Part shown: positions 25,870 to 38,297 of the stretch, in pieces
Layout: each line of letters begins with the position of its first letter
Position numbering within the stretch: position 1 is the first letter of the stretch
From: Catenuloplanes indicus
GTDB lineage: Bacteria; Actinomycetota; Actinomycetes; Mycobacteriales; Micromonosporaceae
Assembly: GCF_030813715.1 (NCBI RefSeq)
Contig: NZ_JAUSUZ010000001.1
Span: forward strand, 6,634,001-6,698,000
DNA: 64,000 nucleotides
Direction: 5' to 3'
Notes under the pieces: model-generated
The model's database searches: none
The model's input: only the letters and a program-made list of their open reading frames with translations
What the model was told of the DNA's origin: nothing
Made by a program: the position numbers and the translations under genes

Positions 25870-28800
25870 TCAGGCGAGGGCCTTGAACGTGCTCACGTTC
25901 ACCGGCAGGACGATCTTGACCTCACCGTTGGTGTTGACCTTGCTCGGGTAGTAGACGCGCACCTGGCCGTCGCTGGCCCGGCGGACCCACATGTCCGGGA
26001 TGGCGTCGCCGTTCTGGTCCGGGATCGAGACGACCGCGGTGATCGCGGCCTCGGACCAGCCGGTGCCGTACTGCACGTCGCCCTGGCGGGACGCCGCGGC
26101 GGACTTCAGCGAGGCCAGGTCGACGCTCTTCGCGATCGTGCCCGGCTTGCCGTGCCGGATCGACATGATGCCGGTGTCCAGGTGGCGGAAGAGCAGGTCG
26201 GGCGTGCCGTCGAGGTCGATGTCCGCGACGTTGACGATCTCCCGGCGGTCCCAGCCGGTCGTCTCCATCTGCACGGCCTCGGCGAAGCTCGCGCCGGTGT
26301 ACCCGGTGAGCGTCCAGAACGCGGTGCCGGACCGGACGAACAGGTCGGGGCGGCCGTCGCCGGTGACGTCACCGACCGCCTTGATCTGCGTCCAGGTGGA
26401 CGGCGCCGGCGTGCCGGACGGCAGCATCACCGAGATCCGGTCGTCGACGTCGAAGCTGCCGTACCCGTCGCCGGGGTAGAGCCAGAACTTGCCGTCCGGG
26501 GTACGGGCGAACACGTCCGTGATGCCGTCGCCCGGGTACGCGTCGCCGAACTTGGCGATCAGCGCGGCCTTGCCGGACGAGTCCGTCCAGTGCCCGGCCG
26601 GGTTCAGCTCGGTGCCGTTGCGGTAGCCCGCGGCCAGCGACGAGTCCACCTCGCCGGTCATGCCGCCGGGGTAGCTGCGCAGGTTGCCGCCGCCGTCGAT
26701 GACCAGCAGGTCGGCGCGCCCGTCACCGGTGACGTCACCCGGGCCGTCCGCCTCCGGGCGCGGCGGCACGTAGAACGAGTAGACCGTTGGCTGGCTGGGG
26801 TTGCCGACCGAGTCGTACGCCTTGACCGTCATGTTGATCGGCCCGGCGTGCGGCGGCTTCAGGTCCGTGACGGTGACCGCGTTCGCCGACGTCTTGGAGA
26901 CCTCGGTGACGCCCTCGAACGCGTACGTGAACCGGGCCGCGCCCTGCGAGGTGAACGTGACCGTACCGGCCTGGCCGAACGGCTTCGTGGCCCAGGTGGC
27001 GCCGTCGTCGGTCGCCTCCGGGAAGTCCACGCTGGTCACCTCGGGCGCCGGCGGGCCGGACGCGTCGATGGTCACCTTGCACGGCGTGCCGGGGGTGGCG
27101 AAGTTGGGGGACTTGGCCGGCGTCGAGTTGCTGTCCTCCGCGTACGCGTCCCAGAGGTAGACGGTCTTGTCGACGAGCGTGGTCGAGGCGATGGTGACGG
27201 AGGCTTTTCCGCTGCTCAGGGCCGTGTGCGGGGTGCCGGCCGTGGGCATGGTCGAGCCCGACTTCCAGAAGCGGAAGTACACCGTCTTGAGGTTGCCGTC
27301 CGGGTCACTCGCGGTCGCGTTCAGCACCAGGTTGGTGCGGGCGACCGTGATACCGGCCGTGGAGCAGCTGCCGCCCGGCGTGCTGGCGAGCGCCGAGGGG
27401 TTGGCCGGCGGCCGGTTGTAGACCGCGGACAGCGAGGCCGACTTGGCGGTGAACTTGCGCCAGGTCTGCGTGTCCCCCTCGGAGGTGGCCCGCATGCCCA
27501 TGGTCAGGTTGTTCGCGCCCGCGTTCGCGGCCTGCTGGGCGAACGCCTTGGCGTCGAACGAGGCGTAGTCGTCCTTGCAGGCGTCGCGGCCGTGTGCGAA
27601 GTTGCGCTTGTTCGCACCGGGGCTCGTGTTCCAGGTCGGCTGCTTGTTCCAGGTGGTGGCCGTGGAGATCGGGCCGGTCCACGCCAGCTGGAACTCGCGC
27701 GTGGTGCACGACCAGGAGTGCACGTTGAGCACCTTGAACGTGGCCGACTCGATGGTCGCGCCCTTGATCGCGGCGTCGAAGCCCATCCGCCAGAACGAGC
27801 GGGCGGTCATGCCGGTCTCGTCCTCGTGGCCGACGCGCGCCTCGGACGTACCGTTGTTGAAGTTCGTGCCGTTGTTGAAGTTGCTGTTCGGGTGCTGCTT
27901 GGAGACGAGCGTCCAGGCCAGCGTGGCGGTGTTCATGGTCGGGTCGAGGAAGACCGGGAAGCGCACGTCCTTGCCGGTGAGCAGGCCGGTCGCGCCCGCG
28001 TCGAGCCGGAGCGTGGCGTTCCCGGTGTTGTCACCGTCCAGCTTCACCGGCAGCTGCGCCGACTTCGCGCCCGGCTCGATGCCGCTGAGGCCGGAGAGAC
28101 GCAGCACGTCCGCGCTGGTCGCGACGGAGGTGCGGGCCGCGGCGCCGGGCGGCAGCTCCGGGTCGGTGCCGGCCGAGTCCCAGCCGAACGGCGTCGGGAT
28201 CGCGGTGATTTCCTTGCCGGCCTTGTCCAGCACCTGCACGCCGCCGGTGACCTTGTCGGACTTGAAGACCGCGGTCGTCGAGCGCAGGCCGTAGGTGACG
28301 GTGCGCACCGCGGCCTGCTTCGCGGCCTCGGGCGTCTTGACGATCAGCAGGTTCGCGAAGCCGCCCTCCTCGCGCGCGACCAGCAGCAGGTCCGCACCGG
28401 GCAGCACCTCGGGGTAGAGCGCGCGCGGCCCGTCCAGCACCGCCTTCGGCAGCGGGCCGGGCCAGGTGTACGTGATGGTGTGCTCGCCGACCTCCGCCTC
28501 GGCGAGCACACTCTCCGTGCCGCTGGTCCCGCCCTCGGCGAACCGCACCGGCGCCGGCGCGTTCGCGGGCCGCACGACGCCGCCGGAACCGGCCAGCGTG
28601 ATGTCGATCGGCGCCCACTGGCCCGAGGCGTTCTTCGCCCGGGCCGGCACCGCGGTGATATCGGTGCGCAGCTTGCCGGTCGGCAGTGCCCAGGTCTGCG
28701 AGGTCTGCGTGGTCGCGGTCTCGACCAGGACGTCAGTGCCGGTGCTGGCCGCCTCCGCCATCGCGGCCTGCTCGTCGCGGGGCGCGGGGACCGGTGGTGC

Positions 28801-28929
28801 CGGCGGGGCGGCCACCGGTGTCTCGTCTCGATGTATCCACAGTGGTGACAAGGCGGCGACGAGCACCGCGGCGAGCGCGCCCGCGGTCAATGTTCGCCGC
28901 GTGCGCGTGCGCACGAAAGGGACGGTCAC
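25870..28929 (-). CDS. Secreted DNRLRE / FG-GAP (VCBS) repeat protein, RHS-associated
   Basis: 1019 residues, GTG start, signal peptide (LTAGALAAVLVAALSPLWI). Residues about 60-330 resemble the N-terminal head of actinobacterial RHS proteins (WALPTGKLRTDITAVPARAK...). Residues about 335-500 form a DNRLRE-type domain (SFWRMGFDAAIKGATIESATFKVL, TTWNKQPTW). Ig-like segments follow. The last 270 residues form FG-GAP/VCBS beta-propeller blades with calcium-type loops (DVTGDGRADLLV, DVTGDGRPDLFV, DIDLDGTPDLLF, DQNGDAIPDMWV). It is divergent from the large RHS toxin, suggesting a surface partner of it; this is inference. Confidence 0.85.
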   Translation of the reverse strand: MTVPFVRTRTRRTLTAGALAAVLVAALSPLWIHRDETPVAAPPAPPVPAPRDEQAAMAEAASTGTDVLVETATTQTSQTWALPTGKLRTDITAVPARAKNASGQWAPIDITLAGSGGVVRPANAPAPVRFAEGGTSGTESVLAEAEVGEHTITYTWPGPLPKAVLDGPRALYPEVLPGADLLLVAREEGGFANLLIVKTPEAAKQAAVRTVTYGLRSTTAVFKSDKVTGGVQVLDKAGKEITAIPTPFGWDSAGTDPELPPGAAARTSVATSADVLRLSGLSGIEPGAKSAQLPVKLDGDNTGNATLRLDAGATGLLTGKDVRFPVFLDPTMNTATLAWTLVSKQHPNSNFNNGTNFNNGTSEARVGHEDETGMTARSFWRMGFDAAIKGATIESATFKVLNVHSWSCTTREFQLAWTGPISTATTWNKQPTWNTSPGANKRNFAHGRDACKDDYASFDAKAFAQQAANAGANNLTMGMRATSEGDTQTWRKFTAKSASLSAVYNRPPANPSALASTPGGSCSTAGITVARTNLVLNATASDPDGNLKTVYFRFWKSGSTMPTAGTPHTALSSGKASVTIASTTLVDKTVYLWDAYAEDSNSTPAKSPNFATPGTPCKVTIDASGPPAPEVTSVDFPEATDDGATWATKPFGQAGTVTFTSQGAARFTYAFEGVTEVSKTSANAVTVTDLKPPHAGPINMTVKAYDSVGNPSQPTVYSFYVPPRPEADGPGDVTGDGRADLLVIDGGGNLRSYPGGMTGEVDSSLAAGYRNGTELNPAGHWTDSSGKAALIAKFGDAYPGDGITDVFARTPDGKFWLYPGDGYGSFDVDDRISVMLPSGTPAPSTWTQIKAVGDVTGDGRPDLFVRSGTAFWTLTGYTGASFAEAVQMETTGWDRREIVNVADIDLDGTPDLLFRHLDTGIMSIRHGKPGTIAKSVDLASLKSAAASRQGDVQYGTGWSEAAITAVVSIPDQNGDAIPDMWVRRASDGQVRVYYPSKVNTNGEVKIVLPVNVSTFKALA

Positions 28930-29329
28930 AGCGTTTTACTCCCCAGGGGCCAGGCGACGAATTGGACAGCCCGAGCGGTCCCGGCCGGGTCCGCGGGGCA
29001 GAGAGCGGGCACACGATCGCATACCCAGTGTGTTCTCAGGGTGTTATGAGGCCGTTATATAGCTCCATGAATCGATTGCGTGACGACCGGTTATATCCGC
29101 TCTGGCCGTTTTGTGCGTGGGATTTGCGCCTACAACGTTGAGTACCCCTTTTGGGCGCTCCGTCGGTAAGGTCCAGCTTTGGAGCCAAACATCGTGTGAT
29201 CTAAATCTCTCGACCGAACGTTCGGTGACTGTCCGTGTACTTGTCCGGATGATCGTCGTGCCGCACAGTGCCCAGGCACGCGCCTTGAGTGGCGTGTCTT
29301 TTGTGGTGCCTACACGGGGAGACGCACCG
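28930..29329. promoter_or_regulatory. 400-base divergent promoter region of FG-GAP and RHS genes
   Basis: It has no coding signal and is distinctly more AT-rich than the flanks around 29035-29110 (TTATATAG, GGTTATATCC), consistent with promoter elements. A perfect palindrome ACCGAACGTTCGGT lies at 29213-29226, about 105 bases before the RHS start, and looks like an operator for a dimeric repressor. ACGGGGAG lies 8 bases before the RHS ATG. Confidence 0.6.
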
Positions 29330-32300
29330 ATGCATGGTGGTATGGGTCCATTGTGGCCGCGGAAACGCGGTCGACGCTGGTCAAGGCCGGCACGCGCGAC
29401 ACTGATCGCGCTCCTGTCGACCACGCTGGTGGTCGCCGGGACGGGAACGCAGGGACTGGCGGTGCCGCCGTCCGGCGCCGACCGCAATCAGCAGGTCGAC
29501 CTGCCGCCGCTGCCGGAGACCGCACCGGTCGACCAGGACGAGTCCGCGGACCAGACGCTCGAACCCGCGCCCGAGGTGCCGGTCGACCCGTACGCGCCGA
29601 CCAACGTCGCGCCGTGGAGCGAGGGCACCGGCACGGTCGACCTGACCGACGTCGACCCCGGTGAGCTGGTCAAGGTCGCGGACCTGCCGGTGTCGCTGGG
29701 TGTGCCGCAGGGCGTCGAGCCGGAGGCGCTGGACGGACAGTGGACCGTCGACCTGGCCGCGCCCGAGGCGTCGCAGGACGCCGGCGTACCCGGTCTGATC
29801 ATGAAGCTTTCGGCGCCGGCCACGGCGGACCCGGCGGCGTCCGTCGCGCTGAGCGTCGACTACACCACCTTCGCCGACCTGTACGGACCGCAGGCCGCCG
29901 ACCGCTTCGGCCTGATGCTGCTGCCCGACTGCGTCTACGACGCGGTCGGCACCGGCGACTGCGCCCCCAGCGAGGGCGAGGAGGAGCCGGCCGAGCCGAC
30001 TCAGCTGCTCTCCAGCGAGGTCACGGTCGCCCCTGCTGCCGCGAATGCTCGCTCCGCTTCGGGTTCGTCGGCCGAGCGCCGGATCGTGACCGGCACCGTG
30101 CCGGTCTCCGGCCTGCTCGCGGCGCCCGCTCCCAACGCCGGCGCGCGCGCCGCCGCCGCGGCCGACGCCGGCGGGGTCGTCGGCGCGCTGGACACCGGTG
30201 CCTCGGTCTCCGGCGACTTCACCGCGACGCCGCTGCTCTCCTCCGGCTCCTGGGCCGCCGGCTCGTCGTCCGGCGCGTTCACCTACTCGTACCAGGTCAC
30301 GGTCCCGCAGACCGGCGGCGGCATGGCGCCGCAGATCAACCTGGGCTACTCGTCGCAGTCGGTCGACGGCCGCACCTCGTCGACGAACAACCAGGCCTCC
30401 TGGATCGGCGACGGCTGGGACTACAGCGCCGGCCAGATCACCCGCACGTACGCGGGCTGCCGGCACGACTCGAAGAAGGCCGGCTCCAACAACGCCAAGC
30501 ACAAGACCGGCGACATGTGCTGGGGCTCGCAGAACGCCACGCTCTCGCTCGGCGGCACCACCACCGAGCTGGTCTACGCGAACGGCACCTGGACCACCGC
30601 GAACGGCGACGGCTCGAAGATCGAGCAGAAGTTCGACACCAGCCGCGGCAACGGTGACAAGAACGGCGAGTACTGGATCGTCACCACCCGCGACGGCACC
30701 CGCTACCACTTCGGCCTGAACAAGCTCCCCGGCTGGACCGACGGCAAGGCGGTCACCAACTCGGTGCTCACCATGCCGGTCTACAGCAACCACGCCGGCG
30801 AGCCCTGCTACAACAGCGAGTGGACGAAGTCCTGGTGCACCGAGGCGTGGCGCTGGTCGCTCGACTACGTCGAGGACCTCCAGGGCAACGCGATGAGCTT
30901 CTGGTGGACCAAGGAGGACAAGGGCTACTACGCCCGTAACTTCAACTGGAAGGCCCCGGTCTCGTACGACCGCGCCGGCTACCTCTCGCGTATCGACTAC
31001 GGTCAGCGCAAGGACTCCATCTTCACCGCGACCGCACCGGCCAGCGTCTCGTTCAGCGTGGCCGAGCGGTGCTACGCCGAGGGCAGCCTCACCTGCTCCG
31101 CGGAGAACTTCAAATCCAAGGACCCGGGCAAATACCGCATCTGGTACGACACGCCGGCGGACCTTCGCTGCGAGGCGAAGAAGATGTGCTGGAACGCCGC
31201 ACCCACCTTCTGGTCCACCAAGCGTCTGGACAAGATCACCACGTCCGCGCTGCGGGTCTCCGGCAGCACCACCCGCCAGGTCGTCGACGAGTACAAGCTC
31301 GACCAGACCTTCCCGGTCCTGAAGACCGGCCCGAACACCGCGCTGTGGCTCAAGTCCATCACGCGCACCGGTTACGGCCTGAACACGGCCGCGAACGAGC
31401 ACATCACGCTCAACGCGGTCAAGTTCGAGTCCAACACCGAGGACATGCCGAACCGGGTCAAGAACGACAACCGGCCCGGCTTCTCCCGTCTCCGCATCGG
31501 CCGTGTGATCAACGAGTACGGCGGCGAGACGGTCATCAACTACAAGAAGCCGGAAGGTGACTGCGCCACCGGAACCGGCCTGCCGGGTAAGACGGACACG
31601 GCCGCGCTGAAGAACAACACGCGGTTGTGCTACCCGTCGTACTGGCACCCGGATCCCGAGGCCGAGCAGATCGACTGGTTCCACAAGTACGTGGTCGACT
31701 CCGTCGAAGAGCTCCCGAACGTCGACGGCAGCTCGAACACGGTCACCCGCTACCAGTACAACGGTGCCGGCTGGAAGCTCGCCGAGCAGGAGTTCACCAA
31801 GAAGTCCACCCGGACGTACTCCCAGTTCGCCGGATTCCAGCAGCTCACGGTGCTGACCGGCGCGGATGAGCCGGACTTCGGCGGCAAGGCCAGCAAGTCG
31901 GTCACCCGCTACTTCCGCGGCATGGGCGACGACGTCTCGATGAAGGACATCGCTGGCGTCGAGATCGCCAAGGACCGGGAGCCGTTCGCCGGCCGGATCG
32001 CGGAGGAACTTACCTACCCGACCGCCACCTCGGACACGGCGACGGAGTGGCTGACCCGCTCGGTCACCGTTCCGGCAGCGCAGGAACTGGCCCGGCGTAA
32101 CCGCGACGACGGGCTCAGCCCGCTGATCGCGTGGCGGGTCACCGAGCCGCGTGCGATCTCCTACACCCGCTCCTCCGGCACCGGCGACGACACCCGCACG
32201 CTGCGCGTGCTCGAGACCAAGACCACCTACGACACGGTGTACGGGCTGCCGACGCTGGTCGAGTTCGCCGGGGATACCGGCAAGGCCGGCGACGAGACCT

Positions 32301-35300
32301 GCACGAAGCTGGAGTACCTGCACCGTGAGGACAAGAACCTCATCGGTCTCTCCAAGCAGGTGCTCGTGCTGCCGACGCTCTGCGGTGCCAGCCCGGACTT
32401 CTCCGATCTGAAGAAGCTCAGCTCCGCGGCCCGCACCGCCTACGACAGCGCCGGTTACGGGGTCGCACTGACGGCGACCACGCGCGGCCTGGCCAGCCAG
32501 ACCTTCTCCCTGAAGGCGGACAGCACCGGCTTCCAGTCCGACGGCACCACCGGCTTCGACGCTATGGGCCGGGTCACCTCGACGACAGACGTCGACGGCA
32601 AGACCTCGACCATCACCTACGAGCCGGCCTCCGGGCAGGCCTTCAAGATCACCGAGAAGAACTCGCTCGGGCACGAGCAGATCAAGGAGATCGAGCCCGG
32701 CCGCGGCGTCAGCGTGCGCGTCACGGACGCGAACAAGCTGGTCAGCGTCTCCTCCTACGACGCACTCGGACGGCTGGTCAGCGGCTGGGCGCCTGGCCGT
32801 ACGCCGAGCGCCACCACGCTGCCGGACTTCCAGGCGACCTACAGCACAAAGGCGGGCGAGATCCCGTACGTGACCACGCTCACTCGCGGCCACGACAACA
32901 AACTACAGAGCTCGATCACGTTCTTTGACGGTCTCGGGCGCGAACGCCAGTCGCAGGAGGAGGCGATTGGTGGCGGTCGGCTGATCACTGACACGCTGTA
33001 CAACGGCTCAGGTGAGGTCTGGCAGACCAACAACGCGTACTACACCACCAGGAGCCCCGAGCCGAAGCTGTTCTGGCCGGACGCGGACACGGCCGTGCCG
33101 AATGCGACTCGTTACACCTACGACGGTCTCGGGCGAGTGCTCACCGAGATGCCGGTACTGAACGGTGCCGACAAACCGGACCGGGCCACCCGGTACGAGT
33201 ACGGCGCTGACTGGTCGACGGTCATCAACCCGGCCGGCGCCCCGTCCTACCGTGTATTCAGTGACGCGAACGGGCTGACCACGCGGATCGACACTTTCAA
33301 GGACGGCAACCGGGCGGCGTTCACCAGCCTGCGGTATGAGTTCGACGACCGCGGCCAGATGGTGAAGGCGTCGCACGGGAGCAACGCTGGCAAGCAGTGG
33401 TCCTGGACGTACGACCAGCGCGGCCGCATGGTCACCGCCACCGACCCGGAAACCGGCACCACGACCACCACGTACGACCACCAGGACCGCCCCCTCACCA
33501 CGACGAACGCGCGCGGCGTGACGCTGTGGAATGGGTACGACCAGCTGTCCCGGCCGACTCAGCAGCGGCTCGGCGACGCCAATGGCACGCTGCTGGCGTC
33601 GTACACCTACGACACCGCGGCGAGGGGCATCGGCCTGCCGGCATCGGTCACGCGGTATACCGACGGGCTGCCTTACACGCAGGCGATCGGCGGGTTCACC
33701 ACCGACTACCAGCCGACCTCCACCACGCTGACACTGCCGGAGAGCATTGCCAACGAGTGGGGCCTCAAACCCACCTACACGTATAGCTACGACTACACCG
33801 ACACGGGTCTGCCGGAAACGATGCAGATGCCGGCGGTCGGCGGCTTCCCCGCCGAGAAGCTGCTGGTGCGCTACACCAAGGACGGTCTGCCGCTGACCGT
33901 GTCCGGCCAGGACTGGTACGGCAGTGAGACCGCGTACTCGCCGTACGGGCAGGTGCTCCGCTCGACGATGGGCACGCATCCGTACCGGGTCTGGGCGCAG
34001 TCGACCTACGACGAGGCAAGCGGCGCGCTGACCGCGCAGCAGGTCTACCGGGAGAACGCCGGAAACAAGGCGCTGGTCGGTGGCAATCTCGCGAGCAACC
34101 GTGAGTACAGCTACGACCCGGCCGGCAACGTCACCGCGATCCGCGAGCGCGCGGACGGCATCGCGGAGCGGCAGTGCTTCACCTATGACGGGATCGGGCA
34201 GCTCACCAAGGCCTGGACCGCGAAAGATCAGCAGGCATGTCACGCCGGTCCGGCCAACGCGGACGGCACGAACAACATCGCGCCCGGGCAGGATCTCTCC
34301 GGCTACTGGCAGGAGTACGGCTACGACGATCTCGGCAACCGGAAGTGGGTCGCCAACAAGGACATCACCGGCGACCGGGCCAAGGACGTCGCGACCGAGT
34401 ACTCGTACGGCAAGGCCGACGGCAGCCAGCCCGGCACGCTGACGAAGATCAAGAAGCGGTACACGACGCCCGAGGGTGCCGAGGTCGCCGCGGAGGCCGA
34501 GCGGCTCTATGAGGTCACCGGCGAGACGAAGACTGTCACCTCGCTGGACACGGGTGACAAGCAGGAGCTGTCCTGGACGTACGACGGGCAGATCGAGCGG
34601 ATCACCGGTCAGGGCGAGAGCGGCAAGACCGCCTACTACGGGCTGGGCGACAAGTGCTTGGACCTGCAGTCCGGGCTGGCTCAGGCTGGTCAGCCGCTTC
34701 AGCTGTACGCGTGCAACGCCTCCATCGCGCAGAAGTGGACGTTCAAGGCCGTACCAAATCAGAACGACCCGAACCTGGGCACGCTGTCCGGCTACGACTC
34801 GTGGTGCGTGCAGCCGTCCGCGAACACCGCCGGCTCGGCCGTCGGCATGCAGAAGTGCGACAGGTCGGCGGCGCAGCGGCTGAAGCGGAATGCGTCGGGG
34901 CAGCTCACCCACGTTGCGTCCGGGCTGTGCCTGGCGGTCAAAGACGGCACCAACGCCAACAGCACGCCGATCGTGCTGGCCGCCTGTGATGCGGCGGCGG
35001 CCGGCCAGAAGTGGGACCCGCAGAACCACACCCGGTACATCTACGGGCCGAGCGGGACCCCGCTGCTGAGCATCCAGGGCAAGCAGGCCACGCTGGACCT
35101 GGGCGAGGCTCAGGTAACGGTGAACCGCGGCGGCGGGCTGGTCAAGACGCACCGCGGTTACGCCACGCCGGGTGGCAGCATCCTCCGATACGCGTACGGC
35201 GCGGGCGGATCGTCGCTGGTGGCCATCGCAACAGATCAGCAGGGTACGCCGTCAGCGGAGATCGTGCTCAAAGAGGGCATGGAGACGCGGATCCGCAAGC

Positions 35301-37051
35301 AGGATCCGTTCGGCAACCCGCGTGGTTCCGCCGCGATGACCGCCAACATGCAGACCGGCGCCGGGTTCGTCGGTGCCGGAAGGGACGACGCATCCGGTTA
35401 CACCCGGCTCGGGGCGCGGCTCTACGATCCGGCGATCGGACGCTTCATGTCCGCTGACCCGATCGTCGACCTGCAGGATCCGATCCAGTCGAACGGATAC
35501 GCGTACGCGCACAACAACCCGGTTACCTACTCGGACAAGTCCGGGCTGTCCGTCTCGCTGACCCCGTCGGAGATGGCGGCGGCGCTTGCCGGCGCCGGGC
35601 TGTCCGCAGCCCAGGTCTCCCAGGCTCAGGCGACGATGAACCAGTCGCTGATGTCGGTGATCCTCTCGGCCGCCTGGGGCGTCCTGGCCGAATTCATCGG
35701 CATCAATGACGCGATCGGCTGCTTCGGCGGCGACATGTGGGCCTGCGGGAGCCTGATCATCGGGGCCATCCCGTGGGGCAAGGTCGCGAAGATCCCGGGT
35801 GTGATCAAGGCGGTCAACCGGACCATCAACGCCATCCAGGCGTGGATCACGGCCAAGAAGACGGCCGAACGGGTGCTGGCCGCGGCGAAGATCGCCACCA
35901 ACCAGGCGCTCGCCGCCAAGAAGGCGGCGATCGAACGAGCGAAGAAGGCCGCGGAGGCGGCTCGCAAGAAGGCCGCCGAGAAGGCCAACACGACGAGCAA
36001 CAAGGCGGTCAACGAGGCCAAGAAGACCGGTGCGCCCGTCCACAAGGACGCCCAGGCGAAGGCGGCGCCGAAGTCGTCGTCCGCAGCCGGCGCAAGACCC
36101 GCCGCTGGCAAGACCCAGTCGTCGAAGCCCAGCGGCAGAGAAGGCGGTGCTTCCCGGGCAAAGGGCGGCACCAGCGGCGACAGCGGCGCGGGCCGGGCCG
36201 GTGGCGGCAGCTGTAAGACCAATAGCTTCATCCCCGGCACCCAGGTGCTGATGGCGGACGGATCGGCAAAGCCGATTGAGGACGTCAGGCCCGGCGACGA
36301 GGTGCGTGCCACCGACCCGAACACGGGTGAGACCACGACCCGGACGGTCACGGCCACCATCACCGGCGAGGGGGTCAAAAAGCTGGTCAAGGTCGTCGTC
36401 GACACCGACGGTGACCGGGGCACGGCGAGTGCTGAGGTCACCGCGACCGACGGCCACCCGTTCTGGGTGCCGGAACTCGGCGAGTGGATCGATGCGGCCT
36501 CCCTGCAGACCGGTCAGTGGCTGCAGACAGGCTCGGGCTCATGGGTGCAGATCGCCGCGGTCGAGCGCTGGACGGTGCCGGACGCCACCGTGCACAACCT
36601 GACGGTCGGCGAGGTCCACACCTATTACGTGCTCGCCGACGCCGAATCGGTCCTCGTACACAACTGCGGGCTGGCGGAGATCGCGGCGGACCATCGCACC
36701 AATGCGAACGGCGGGCTGGGTGTCAAGGAAGGTAAGAACATCGCCGTCATGCACACGCAGATCGACGGGCAGTCGCCAACGGTGGGAGTGGCGACCAGCG
36801 GCAAGCATGTCAACCCCGGTGAGGTGGGCATGCCCAAGACCAGGCAATTCGTGCCGCCGAACCCGTCGAGGCAATTCGATTCCGAGGTGTTCCTCTTCGA
36901 GGATCTTGCCACCCGTCTCACTCCGACATCTACCGGAACCGTCAATCTCTACTCGGAGCGGATAGTCTGTCCCAGTTGTGGAGACGTCATCGATCAGTTC
37001 AAGGCGAGATTCCCTGGCATCAAGGTCAATATCACGACCGGGCAGGACTGA
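29330..37051 (+). CDS. RHS-repeat polymorphic toxin: ricin-B insert, Hint domain, deaminase-type toxin
   Basis: 2573 residues. In order: signal peptide (about 1-45); SpvB/RHS head including VTVPQTGGGMAPQINLGYSS near 320; a long series of YD repeats; an inserted ricin-B lectin-like unit at about 1765-1900 (KCLDLQSG, WCVQPSA, LCLAVKDG); and the RHS core end LGARLYDPAIGRFMSADP near 2030. A hydrophobic/pretoxin stretch and a Lys/Ala-rich helix (about 2165-2235) follow. A Hint autoprotease runs from C2295 (CKTNSFIPGTQVLMADG) to VHN before C2446. The C-terminal 128 residues carry DSE (2517-2519) and CPSC (2547-2550), matching BURPS668_1122-like toxin deaminases. The RHS shell should encapsulate the toxin and Hint cleavage should free it. 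GGGGAG supports the ATG. Confidence 0.9.
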   Translation: MHGGMGPLWPRKRGRRWSRPARATLIALLSTTLVVAGTGTQGLAVPPSGADRNQQVDLPPLPETAPVDQDESADQTLEPAPEVPVDPYAPTNVAPWSEGTGTVDLTDVDPGELVKVADLPVSLGVPQGVEPEALDGQWTVDLAAPEASQDAGVPGLIMKLSAPATADPAASVALSVDYTTFADLYGPQAADRFGLMLLPDCVYDAVGTGDCAPSEGEEEPAEPTQLLSSEVTVAPAAANARSASGSSAERRIVTGTVPVSGLLAAPAPNAGARAAAAADAGGVVGALDTGASVSGDFTATPLLSSGSWAAGSSSGAFTYSYQVTVPQTGGGMAPQINLGYSSQSVDGRTSSTNNQASWIGDGWDYSAGQITRTYAGCRHDSKKAGSNNAKHKTGDMCWGSQNATLSLGGTTTELVYANGTWTTANGDGSKIEQKFDTSRGNGDKNGEYWIVTTRDGTRYHFGLNKLPGWTDGKAVTNSVLTMPVYSNHAGEPCYNSEWTKSWCTEAWRWSLDYVEDLQGNAMSFWWTKEDKGYYARNFNWKAPVSYDRAGYLSRIDYGQRKDSIFTATAPASVSFSVAERCYAEGSLTCSAENFKSKDPGKYRIWYDTPADLRCEAKKMCWNAAPTFWSTKRLDKITTSALRVSGSTTRQVVDEYKLDQTFPVLKTGPNTALWLKSITRTGYGLNTAANEHITLNAVKFESNTEDMPNRVKNDNRPGFSRLRIGRVINEYGGETVINYKKPEGDCATGTGLPGKTDTAALKNNTRLCYPSYWHPDPEAEQIDWFHKYVVDSVEELPNVDGSSNTVTRYQYNGAGWKLAEQEFTKKSTRTYSQFAGFQQLTVLTGADEPDFGGKASKSVTRYFRGMGDDVSMKDIAGVEIAKDREPFAGRIAEELTYPTATSDTATEWLTRSVTVPAAQELARRNRDDGLSPLIAWRVTEPRAISYTRSSGTGDDTRTLRVLETKTTYDTVYGLPTLVEFAGDTGKAGDETCTKLEYLHREDKNLIGLSKQVLVLPTLCGASPDFSDLKKLSSAARTAYDSAGYGVALTATTRGLASQTFSLKADSTGFQSDGTTGFDAMGRVTSTTDVDGKTSTITYEPASGQAFKITEKNSLGHEQIKEIEPGRGVSVRVTDANKLVSVSSYDALGRLVSGWAPGRTPSATTLPDFQATYSTKAGEIPYVTTLTRGHDNKLQSSITFFDGLGRERQSQEEAIGGGRLITDTLYNGSGEVWQTNNAYYTTRSPEPKLFWPDADTAVPNATRYTYDGLGRVLTEMPVLNGADKPDRATRYEYGADWSTVINPAGAPSYRVFSDANGLTTRIDTFKDGNRAAFTSLRYEFDDRGQMVKASHGSNAGKQWSWTYDQRGRMVTATDPETGTTTTTYDHQDRPLTTTNARGVTLWNGYDQLSRPTQQRLGDANGTLLASYTYDTAARGIGLPASVTRYTDGLPYTQAIGGFTTDYQPTSTTLTLPESIANEWGLKPTYTYSYDYTDTGLPETMQMPAVGGFPAEKLLVRYTKDGLPLTVSGQDWYGSETAYSPYGQVLRSTMGTHPYRVWAQSTYDEASGALTAQQVYRENAGNKALVGGNLASNREYSYDPAGNVTAIRERADGIAERQCFTYDGIGQLTKAWTAKDQQACHAGPANADGTNNIAPGQDLSGYWQEYGYDDLGNRKWVANKDITGDRAKDVATEYSYGKADGSQPGTLTKIKKRYTTPEGAEVAAEAERLYEVTGETKTVTSLDTGDKQELSWTYDGQIERITGQGESGKTAYYGLGDKCLDLQSGLAQAGQPLQLYACNASIAQKWTFKAVPNQNDPNLGTLSGYDSWCVQPSANTAGSAVGMQKCDRSAAQRLKRNASGQLTHVASGLCLAVKDGTNANSTPIVLAACDAAAAGQKWDPQNHTRYIYGPSGTPLLSIQGKQATLDLGEAQVTVNRGGGLVKTHRGYATPGGSILRYAYGAGGSSLVAIATDQQGTPSAEIVLKEGMETRIRKQDPFGNPRGSAAMTANMQTGAGFVGAGRDDASGYTRLGARLYDPAIGRFMSADPIVDLQDPIQSNGYAYAHNNPVTYSDKSGLSVSLTPSEMAAALAGAGLSAAQVSQAQATMNQSLMSVILSAAWGVLAEFIGINDAIGCFGGDMWACGSLIIGAIPWGKVAKIPGVIKAVNRTINAIQAWITAKKTAERVLAAAKIATNQALAAKKAAIERAKKAAEAARKKAAEKANTTSNKAVNEAKKTGAPVHKDAQAKAAPKSSSAAGARPAAGKTQSSKPSGREGGASRAKGGTSGDSGAGRAGGGSCKTNSFIPGTQVLMADGSAKPIEDVRPGDEVRATDPNTGETTTRTVTATITGEGVKKLVKVVVDTDGDRGTASAEVTATDGHPFWVPELGEWIDAASLQTGQWLQTGSGSWVQIAAVERWTVPDATVHNLTVGEVHTYYVLADAESVLVHNCGLAEIAADHRTNANGGLGVKEGKNIAVMHTQIDGQSPTVGVATSGKHVNPGEVGMPKTRQFVPPNPSRQFDSEVFLFEDLATRLTPTSTGTVNLYSERIVCPSCGDVIDQFKARFPGIKVNITTGQD

Positions 37052-37054
37052 GCA

Positions 37055-37498
37055 ATGCACTCAATTTCTGAGCTGGCGGATCTGATTCGTCGCGAGGATC
37101 CCGAAGCTGTGCGAGGTGTGACGGCGCAGCAGGTCGCCGAGATCCAGGAGGCGTGGGGCGTCCCGCAGCTGCCGGCGGTGTATGTGGATTTCCTTACCCA
37201 CATGGGGTTCGGAGCGGGCAGGGTGCTTCGCGGTACCGACGCGTTCTTCCCGGCCGTGCGCCAGATGAAAAAGTGGGGAGACGATTTCTTCCACGAGAAC
37301 TCAGGAATTTCGCGGCCGGGCGAGGCAGTTGTGTTCGCAATGCATCAGGGCTATCTCGTCTACTGGATGTCGGATATTTCATCGCCCGACCCTGAAGTTG
37401 TGCTCTGCGCGGAAGGCGACCCGTCGCCATCGCGCGTCTGGCCTTCTTTCACGGCTTTCCTCAACTCGCACTACGAGGATGAGCCGGGGGTGAAATAG
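37055..37498 (+). CDS. SMI1/KNR4-family immunity protein
   Basis: 147 residues, starting 3 bases after the toxin stop. The pattern fits SMI1/KNR4 (SUKH) proteins: an N-terminal helix, EIQEAWGVPQLPAVYVDFLTHMGFGAG, then GEAVVFAMHQGYLVYWMSD and the C-terminal WPSFTAFLNSHY. SUKH proteins are common immunity partners of contact-dependent toxins and would bind and neutralise the deaminase domain in the producer. Together with the toxin tip its codon use is visibly less GC-biased than its neighbours, as expected for an exchanged toxin-immunity cassette. Confidence 0.85.
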   Translation: MHSISELADLIRREDPEAVRGVTAQQVAEIQEAWGVPQLPAVYVDFLTHMGFGAGRVLRGTDAFFPAVRQMKKWGDDFFHENSGISRPGEAVVFAMHQGYLVYWMSDISSPDPEVVLCAEGDPSPSRVWPSFTAFLNSHYEDEPGVK

Positions 37499-37538
37499 GC
37501 GCCTTCCCGGTTGGTCGTCCGGAAGGATTGATATTGTG

Positions 37539-37572
37539 AGCGGGAGCCGGATCGCGAGATCCGGCTCCCGCT
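37539..37572. terminator. Strong hairpin after the toxin-immunity pair
   Basis: A perfect 15-bp stem (AGCGGGAGCCGGATC with 37558-37572) closes a GCGA tetraloop. It is 40 bases after the immunity stop and upstream of the convergent GNAT gene end; it probably terminates from both sides. Confidence 0.75.
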
Positions 37573-37736
37573 GTCGTTCGTCAACAGTGCAGCGAGGCAC
37601 GCTGGAGGGAATCGACGGCAGTCGTGTGCATGACGACCCTCGGGCTGCCCTGTCGACTCTGTTCGCCTTTCCTCCGGACGGTCAGGAGAGGCGACGGATA
37701 GATACGAACGATTCGGCCGTAGTAGTTCTCCGAGCG

Positions 37737-38297
37737 CTACTCCATCGGCGAGAGGGGAATTGCCGGACGTGCATCGGTTGGGGCGGAATGGAGGTCCCGC
37801 TCGAAGAAACGCCAGTGCTGCCGCATGTGCGCCGGGATCTCCGTCTCCTCGTAGGGGCCGCGCTCGACGAAGCCACGCGACAGGTAGAGGCGCTGTGCGT
37901 CGGTCATGAAACGGCAGGTGTCGAGCCGGATCGTGGTCGCGCCGAGCGTGCCGTGGGCCTCGGTGAGCAGCCGATCCAGCAGCGCGGCGCCGAGTCCGAG
38001 GCCGCGGCCGCGCGGGTCCACGTACATCCGCTTGACCTCGGCCATCTCAGGGGTGAGCGTGCGCAGCGCGGCGACGCCTACCGGCTCACCGTCGCGTTCC
38101 GCGACGATCAGAAGCCCTTTCGGCGGTACGAACGAGGGCAGCGATTCCCGGATGGCGCTCAGGTCGGTGGGGGAGTCCTCGACGCCGTACTCCTCGCGCA
38201 GCCGTCCCACGGCCCAGCTTAGATAGTCGCTCATCAGTGCGGTTACCGCGTCCGAGTCGGTGCTGAGATCTGCGTGGCGAAGGATGGTGGCGCTCAT
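37737..38297 (-). CDS. GNAT-family N-acetyltransferase
   Basis: 186 residues. Acetyl-CoA-binding motif A is clear (EVKRMYVDPRGRGLGLGAALLDRLL), followed by TIRLDTCRFMTDAQRLYLSRGF, typical of GNATs acting on small molecules or amino-terminal groups. The substrate is unknown. The gene lies 21 bases downstream of a universal stress protein gene on the same strand. Confidence 0.88.
   Translation of the reverse strand: MSATILRHADLSTDSDAVTALMSDYLSWAVGRLREEYGVEDSPTDLSAIRESLPSFVPPKGLLIVAERDGEPVGVAALRTLTPEMAEVKRMYVDPRGRGLGLGAALLDRLLTEAHGTLGATTIRLDTCRFMTDAQRLYLSRGFVERGPYEETEIPAHMRQHWRFFERDLHSAPTDARPAIPLSPME

What the first reader, a model, noticed from the sequence alone, without database searches (positions are those of the whole stretch)
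29330..37498. RHS polymorphic toxin with Hint-released deaminase domain and SUKH immunity
The RHS shell ends in LGARLYDPAIGRFMSADP, followed by a Hint domain (C2295 to VHN) and a 128-residue tip with DSE and CPSC motifs, resembling BURPS668_1122-type toxin deaminases. The first metal ligand would be Asp rather than the His or Cys of classical deaminases. An SMI1/KNR4 gene follows after 3 bases. A signal-peptide-bearing actinobacterial RHS protein carrying this tip, with no secretion-system genes nearby, is a good candidate for an unstudied intercellular or developmental weapon.
Basis: partly seen in the sequence, partly recalled or inferred. Interest (0 to 1): 0.78.

Follow-up and report, generated by a model that had tools for sequence, protein, structure and literature searches.

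The report
Swappable bacterial toxin with cysteine-bracketed cutter
A soil actinobacterium carries a large shell protein ending in a predicted base-altering toxin with its own antidote gene, an ordinary kind of weapon, but the self-cutting part that should free the toxin is bracketed by two cysteines, a pattern seen in most sampled relatives and suggesting that the toxin stays tied on until it meets a reducing cell interior.

Summary
The Asp of DSE is the rule: 15 of 19 aligned actinobacterial domains (window included) have D there, and [HCD]xE is in print. In three congeners the same shell, with the same downstream flank, carries other tips and other downstream genes: an exchangeable cassette. 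As a system: a new member of a known kind.

What looks new: C2295 is not Hint residue 1 (that is Ser2299). C2295 and C2446 bracket the Hint. Of 86 unrelated tips sampled in the family, 84 have a Cys within 12 residues before the Hint and 83 one at the tip's start or very end; the 119 Hints parsed hold no Cys in 17,003 residues. I read this as a disulfide that keeps the Hint-cut toxin tethered until reduction in the target cytosol.

The parts
29330..37051 (+). RHS polymorphic toxin gene, 2573 aa
   Evidence: GGGGAGA 7 bases upstream
29330..29464 (+). signal-peptide-like N-terminus (basic stretch, hydrophobic core, GLA)
   Evidence: read by eye from the translation; no predictor was run
34649..35014 (+). 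ricin-type beta-trefoil lectin domain embedded in the shell (residues 1774-1895)
   Evidence: Pfam PF00652 E 3.5e-17
35303..35548 (+). RHS repeat-associated core (residues 1992-2073)
   Evidence: TIGR03696 E 2.9e-17
35636..36025 (+). hydrophobic hairpin (about 2103-2162) and Lys/Ala-rich helix (about 2171-2232), candidate membrane-entry segment
   Evidence: sequence only; hairpin also read in L043, helix in L043-L045
36212..36214 (+). Cys2295, N-side bracket cysteine
36224..36664 (+). PT-HINT domain, Ser2299 to Asn2445 (TDGH from 2373, VHN 2443-2445)
   Evidence: Pfam PF07591 E 2.5e-16
36665..36667 (+). Cys2446, tip-side bracket cysteine
36665..37048 (+). deaminase toxin tip, PF14424 (residues 2446-2573)
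   Evidence: E 1.3e-16
36878..36886 (+). DSE motif: predicted metal ligand Asp2517 and catalytic Glu2519
36968..36979 (+). CPSC motif: predicted metal ligands Cys2547, Cys2550
37055..37498 (+). SUKH-1 (SMI1/KNR4) immunity gene, 147 aa
   Evidence: PF09346 E 1.1e-10
36665..37797 (+). exchangeable cassette: tip, immunity gene and about 300 bases
   Evidence: homology with three congeneric loci stops at 36200-36683 and resumes at 37797-37805

Best explanation
It is an exported RHS polymorphic toxin used against neighbouring bacteria. The RHS shell, helped by its ricin-B lectin, holds and targets the toxin. The Hint domain cuts after Asn2445 and frees the tip as a separate chain. The tip, a BURPS668_1122-family zinc deaminase (D2517, C2547, C2550 as metal ligands, E2519 as catalytic acid/base), most likely deaminates cytosine in DNA or RNA of the target. 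The SUKH protein made from the next gene protects the producer and its kin. A disulfide between Cys2295 and Cys2446, one on each side of the Hint, keeps the cut toxin tied to the shell outside the cell, and reduction in the target cytosol lets it go. Shown by sequence: the architecture, the family matches, the cassette exchange, the cysteine bracket. Inferred: export, cleavage, the disulfide and its role, the substrate, the immunity interaction.
For: Domain matches. E of DxE and both Cys of CxxC are invariant in 19 of 19 aligned domains (window included), while the D position is D in 15, E in 2, H in 1, G in 1. Tips 72-77% identical in the three closest relatives; in the two named ones the SUKH protein is 59 and 65% identical. 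Of the downstream proteins of 10 of the 19 other PF14424 loci, 6 are SUKH-1 above cut-off, 1 just below, 2 ankyrin, 1 without match. Cassette exchange beside the same downstream flank in 4 of the 5 genus genomes, window included. Bracket: N-side Cys within 12 residues in 84 of 86 tip clusters, Cys in tip residues 1-12 in 74 of 86 (expected 6.6; 1000 shuffles mean 14.0, maximum 26), 9 of the other 12 with Cys in the last five residues against 2 of the 74, no Cys inside 119 Hints; with the N-side window widened to 25 residues, 119 of 119. The shell of G003, 87% identical over 1000 aa, has no Hint, neither Cys and a Cys-free tip. In the window protein the other Cys can be grouped into 12 neighbouring pairs 6 to 27 residues apart, leaving 2295/2446 and the CxxC (the pairing is my grouping).
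Against: No structure, activity, cleavage or redox measurement. PF14424 is matched only over its C-terminal part (85-143 of 146). Half of the tip-side signal (43 of 86 clusters) is a Cys exactly at +1, which could be inherited with the Hint. 5 of 86 clusters do not show the bracket within the set windows (L093, L115, L129, L153, L186; L093 has no tip Cys at all). Oscillatoria, Nostoc and Undibacterium Hints lack the separate N-side Cys. 4 of the 19 other PF14424 loci showed no convincing immunity ORF in my listing (L010, L012, L016, L022). No secretion machinery was found among the neighbours scanned, so export rests on the N-terminus alone.
Confidence: 0.75

Rival explanations
1. The tip-side Cys is a relic of the intein +1 nucleophile, carried along because recombination of tips happens just downstream of VHN-C; there is no functional disulfide.
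For: 43 of 86 clusters have Cys exactly at +1; Hint and intein share ancestry (recalled; the weaker PDB matches include intein-containing proteins).
Against: Of the 43 clusters without Cys at +1, 31 have one at 2-12 and 9 have one in the last five residues of the tip, 3 neither, which inheritance of +1 does not explain; the N-side Cys lies outside the Hint and persists beside a Cys at residue 1 in L201, L206, L207 and L220 and L105.
Confidence: 0.2
2. The bracket disulfide does not tether a cut toxin but holds the Hint inactive outside; reduction in the target cytosol starts cleavage.
For: Same cysteine pattern; a bond across the Hint could strain or block the C-terminal step (inference).
Against: Nothing here separates it from the tether reading; C-terminally placed cysteines (9 clusters) fit a tether better than a block at the cut site.
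Confidence: 0.25
3. The tip deaminates free nucleotides or another small molecule instead of nucleic acid.
For: No measured substrate for PF14424 was seen in the listings or the passages.
Against: Deaminase tips in the same role act on DNA: SsdA (PMC7901873, passages) and UmbC1 (PMC11062931, passages).
Confidence: 0.2
4. The locus is decayed or works in development rather than competition.
For: Short or remnant tips exist in relatives (L007, L013, L021).
Against: Here the frame is open over 2573 aa, motifs are present and the immunity gene is adjacent; tips differ between congeners, as expected of conflict genes.
Confidence: 0.1

Closest known systems
Classical polymorphic toxins with RHS, HINT and BURPS668_1122 deaminase, SUKH immunity (Zhang et al. 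2012, PMC3482391; passages and section 30 seen)
   Same: RHS and HINT listed with deaminase tips, [HCD]xE and CxxC, SUKH listed with BURPS668_1122, RicinB embedded among RHS repeats
   Different: The cysteine bracket was not in the passages seen; 'disulfide' does not occur in the held part of the text (first 300,000 of 357,715 characters)
Streptomyces umbrella toxin UmbC1 (PMC11062931; passages; its PDB entries 8w20/8w22 give the best sequence match to the Hint, E 2.5e-20, but the paper says the HINT domain was not resolved)
   Same: exported actinobacterial toxin, HINT and C-terminal deaminase, tip shown to cause C-to-T mutations
   Different: ALF-repeat proteins with partner proteins instead of an RHS shell; whether its deaminase belongs to PF14424 was not checked
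Bacterial intein-like domain 2lwy_A (PDB, E 1.4e-12)
   Same: Hint-type domain ending in VHN
   Different: stand-alone domain entry; not examined further
DddA and SsdA deaminase toxins (PMC7901873; passages)
   Same: interbacterial deaminase toxins; SsdA seen in complex with its immunity protein
   Different: other deaminase subgroups (SsdA DYW-like; DddA SCP1.201, recalled), delivered by Gram-negative systems (DddA by T6SS, abstract)
Salmonella STY_RS01505 Tox-deaminase with SUKH_5 (PMC10469887; passages)
   Same: BURPS668_1122 tip followed by a SUKH gene
   Different: 86-aa stand-alone protein in a T6SS region, no RHS shell or Hint
CdiA-CT regions with PF14424 (Yersinia intermedia, PMC9424206, passages; P. 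aeruginosa LESB58, table row in PMC4725963, passages)
   Same: PF14424 named as the predicted toxin domain
   Different: CDI carriers; the disulfide studied in PMC9424206 lies inside the entry domain, not across the release site

Membership tests
BURPS668_1122 / Toxin-deaminase (PF14424) | profile score above the curated cut-off | tested here: met
   61.5 bits against 29.6 for the tip
BURPS668_1122 / Toxin-deaminase (PF14424) | [HCD]xE and CxxC motifs | tested here: met
   DSE and CPSC; E and both C invariant in 19 of 19
BURPS668_1122 / Toxin-deaminase (PF14424) | deaminase fold with bound zinc, and deaminase activity | not testable with these tools
   structure prediction off
PT-HINT | profile match, TDGH-type block and C-terminal HN | tested here: met
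   E 2.5e-16; TDGH and VHN
PT-HINT | autocleavage | not testable with these tools
   needs bench work
RHS polymorphic toxin | RHS core followed by a variable tip; same shell with different tips | tested here: met
   TIGR03696; three congeneric shells 85-87% identical over 1000 aa with other tips
SUKH immunity | SMI1_KNR4 profile match next to a toxin tip | tested here: met
   E 1.1e-10, 3 bases downstream
SUKH immunity | binds and neutralises the tip | not testable with these tools
   no complex prediction possible
Umbrella toxin (UmbC) | ALF repeats | tested here: not met
   no ALF family among the 13 Pfam rows for the whole protein

The most novel reading that the evidence does not exclude
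Actinobacterial Hint-type polymorphic toxins share a redox lock: a cysteine just before the Hint and one at the start (or the very end) of each unrelated toxin tip form a disulfide, so that Hint-cut toxin stays tied to its exported shell and is let go only in a reducing cytosol, much as nicked, disulfide-linked AB toxins are (that comparison is recalled). Residue 1 of the Hint is Ser in the 119 parsed family members (one unparsed member, L105, has Cys), perhaps so that it cannot mispair.
Probability: 0.65. Interest if true: 0.75.

Novelty: new member of a known kind. Interest (0 to 1): 0.57.

Why it matters
As a toxin it adds a clean actinobacterial example of a deaminase family for which no measured substrate was seen in the library searches made here, with an immunity gene to make it workable in the laboratory. 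The cysteine bracket, if it is a disulfide, answers how a self-cutting toxin stays on its carrier after cleavage and where it is let go. It would apply to dozens of unrelated toxins at once, can be tested with one gel, and gives a sequence rule for finding the true start of toxin tips.

Tried and rejected
Considered and dropped: a non-deaminase reading of the tip (no other Pfam family reached its cut-off); the Asp ligand as a novelty (D in 15 of 19 domains; [HCD]xE in print); C2295 as Hint residue 1; secretion genes among ten neighbouring ORFs (matches: cyclase, Exo_endo_phos, FG-GAP, AraA, LuxR-type GerE, UbiA; four ORFs without match; the rest of the window was not scanned); PADLOC models (no hit for toxin or immunity protein); plasmid relatives of the tip (2 weak records); viral contigs (none); a single-protein search for the tip in 396 genomes drawn from the phylum (only the window itself).

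Led nowhere: PDB search with the tip gave only weak matches (best E 0.14, a different enzyme; APOBEC-3F E 1.1); PDB search with the SUKH protein gave none; Pfam scan of nine other tips of the genus matched one (Deam_C, just above its cut-off); the paper listing was mostly unrelated.

Of the 14 dropped, 9 were then read by eye: all 9 have Cys at tip position 1-7, and the 8 whose N-side is in frame have the N-side Cys; 5 (L078, L122, L139, L145, L178) stayed unread. In a second set of 24 loci fetched from other families (L189-L212), 9 parsed and show Cys on both sides in 9 of 9; 15 did not parse. Of ten plasmid loci chosen from 60 listed, the five Streptomyces and the Sinomonas show both; the Paenibacillus locus does too, though my script set its Hint/tip boundary wrongly; Oscillatoria has Cys at residue 1 only and no tip Cys; Nostoc and Undibacterium have Cys at residue 1 plus a tip Cys and no separate N-side Cys. 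The bracket in injected or cytosolic Hint proteins was not compared as a group. The Hint-less control is a single locus (L043).

Full report
The gene. The ORF at 29330-37051 encodes 2573 residues. The ATG at 29330 has GGGGAGA seven bases upstream; an in-frame TTG at 29111 is possible but less likely. The N-terminus reads as a signal peptide by eye. Pfam and NCBIfam find a ricin-B lectin domain (1774-1895), RHS repeats, the RHS core (1992-2073), PT-HINT (2308-2445) and PF14424 Toxin-deaminase in the tip. The gene starting 3 bases after the stop is SMI1_KNR4.

The deaminase. The tip alone scores 61.5 bits against a cut-off of 29.6, and the genome gave only this one PF14424 match. PF14424 is sparse: 12 of 354 genomes of the family, 8 of 394 of the class, 1 of 5 of the genus, the own genome included each time. 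In an alignment of 19 domains, the window's included, the catalytic Glu and the CxxC cysteines are invariant; the first-ligand position is Asp in 15, Glu in 2 (L009, L018), His in 1 (L022) and Gly in 1 (L021, a short remnant) (L013, which lacks that part, was left out). So Asp is the normal state here. The published table for toxin deaminases gives [HCD]xE (PMC3482391, passages). No substrate assay of a PF14424 toxin was seen in the listings or the passages.

Immunity. Zhang et al. list SUKH with BURPS668_1122 deaminases. Of the 19 other PF14424 loci, I scanned the downstream protein of 10: 6 SUKH-1 above cut-off, 1 just below (24.5 against 25.4), 2 with ankyrin matches, 1 without match. Of the 9 not scanned, L007, L013, L018 and L021 look SUKH-like and L003 ankyrin-like by eye, and L010, L012, L016 and L022 showed no convincing ORF. 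The two named relatives, Paractinoplanes ferrugineus and Micromonospora rubida, carry a tip 74 and 72% identical and a SUKH protein 65 and 59% identical. Their contig lengths equal those of G030:C96 and G231:C23, which places the window in their family, Micromonosporaceae (family name recalled).

Cassette exchange. A 1000-aa shell query gives 7 matches in the own genome (the window among them) and shells of 87, 87 and 85% identity in G003, G004 and G001; G002 has only distant ones. DNA identity with these three loci runs to window 36200 (G003), 36667 (G004) and 36683 (G001) and resumes at 37805, 37797 and 37800, at 80-94% identity. Upstream flanks were not compared. Between lie different tips and different genes starting 2 or 3 bases after them; G003 has also lost the Hint. 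The tip and its immunity gene are therefore swapped as a unit at a fixed site. The G001 tip has a HAEE ... CRDIC pattern that looks deaminase-like but has no Pfam match; a related shell in G003 (70% identical) carries a Deam_C tip (27.3 bits against 27).

The cysteine bracket. C2295 lies four residues before Ser2299, which aligns with the start of the Hint block in 8w20_A and 2lwy_A. C2446 follows VHN directly. I sampled PT-HINT/tip junctions in the family; 119 of 133 parsed. Hint residue 1 is Ser in 119 of 119, and there is no Cys in 17,003 Hint residues; L105, which did not parse, has Cys at residue 1. Grouping the tips by blastp at E 1e-3 gives 86 clusters. An N-side Cys within 12 residues is present in 84 of 86 clusters (116 of 119 junctions; the window -25 to -14 holds one in 1 and 2, of 83 and 116 with that much sequence); within 25 residues it is present in 119 of 119. 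A Cys in tip residues 1-12 is present in 74 of 86 (expected 6.6 from the tip interior; within-tip shuffles gave a mean of 14.0 and a maximum of 26 in 1000). Of the 12 without, 9 have a Cys in the last five residues, against 2 of the 74 with (Fisher p 2e-8). Both sides are present in 81 of 86 (113 of 119); the five exceptions are L093 (no tip Cys), L115 and L129 (tip Cys at 20 and 15), L153 and L186 (N-side Cys further upstream). Trp, His, Met, Phe, Tyr, Asn and Gly show no comparable excess. The Hint-less shell of G003 has neither Cys and a Cys-free tip, a single case. The remaining cysteines of the window protein can be grouped into 12 neighbouring pairs plus the CxxC.

Reading. Two cysteines at variable short distances on either side of a cysteine-free self-cutting domain, in a protein that looks exported, are best explained as a disulfide across the cut. 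It would hold the freed toxin on its carrier outside and release it on reduction. The relic-of-intein reading explains Cys at +1 (43 clusters) but not the 31 shifted and 9 C-terminal ones, nor the N-side Cys. The pattern extends beyond the family: 9 of 9 parsed loci among L189-L212 (15 not parsed), five Streptomyces and one Sinomonas plasmid loci and a Paenibacillus one; Oscillatoria, Nostoc and Undibacterium lack the separate N-side Cys. Whether it tracks the delivery route was not tested.

Literature on the bracket. Four searches combining Hint, polymorphic toxin, intein-like or Rhs with disulfide returned 2, 0, 2 and 11 papers. I saw passages of two of these, PMC7738311 and PMC9424206; neither describes it, and PMC3482391 does not use the word disulfide in its held text. 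The other listed papers were not opened for this. The library holds open-licence papers only, so the pattern may be known elsewhere.

Verdict. The finding is right in its main points and ordinary as a system. The new value lies in the cysteine bracket, a statistical result with an inferred mechanism. In checking this report I corrected counts outside the family (9 parsed, not 11; five Streptomyces, not six) and the status of 8w20, whose HINT domain the paper says was not resolved; the odds did not need changing.

Noticed in passing
window 35636-36025 (residues about 2103-2232): Hydrophobic hairpin followed by a Lys/Ala-rich helix between RHS core and Hint; the hairpin is also in L043, the shell that lost its Hint, and the helix in L043-L045. 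Candidate membrane-entry segment.
   Followed up: partly
L045 (G001) and L046 (G003): Related shells carry other deaminase-like tips: HAEE...CRDIC without a Pfam match, and a Deam_C tip just above cut-off.
   Followed up: partly
L009, L018: PF14424 tips in long open frames with Glu in place of the Asp ligand (EPE, ETE).
   Followed up: no
L043 (G003): Shell of the same site without Hint, with a Cys-free tip and a different downstream gene.
   Followed up: partly
L007/L054, L013, L021: Stand-alone or shortened PF14424 tips next to SUKH-like genes, looking like stored or decaying cassettes.
   Followed up: no
G003:C1:9150803-9151426: Fragment of an RHS shell with an internal stop, near the intact related shell at 9121070.
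   Followed up: no
window 25870-28926 (-): Large FG-GAP repeat protein beside the toxin gene; link to the toxin unknown.
   Followed up: no
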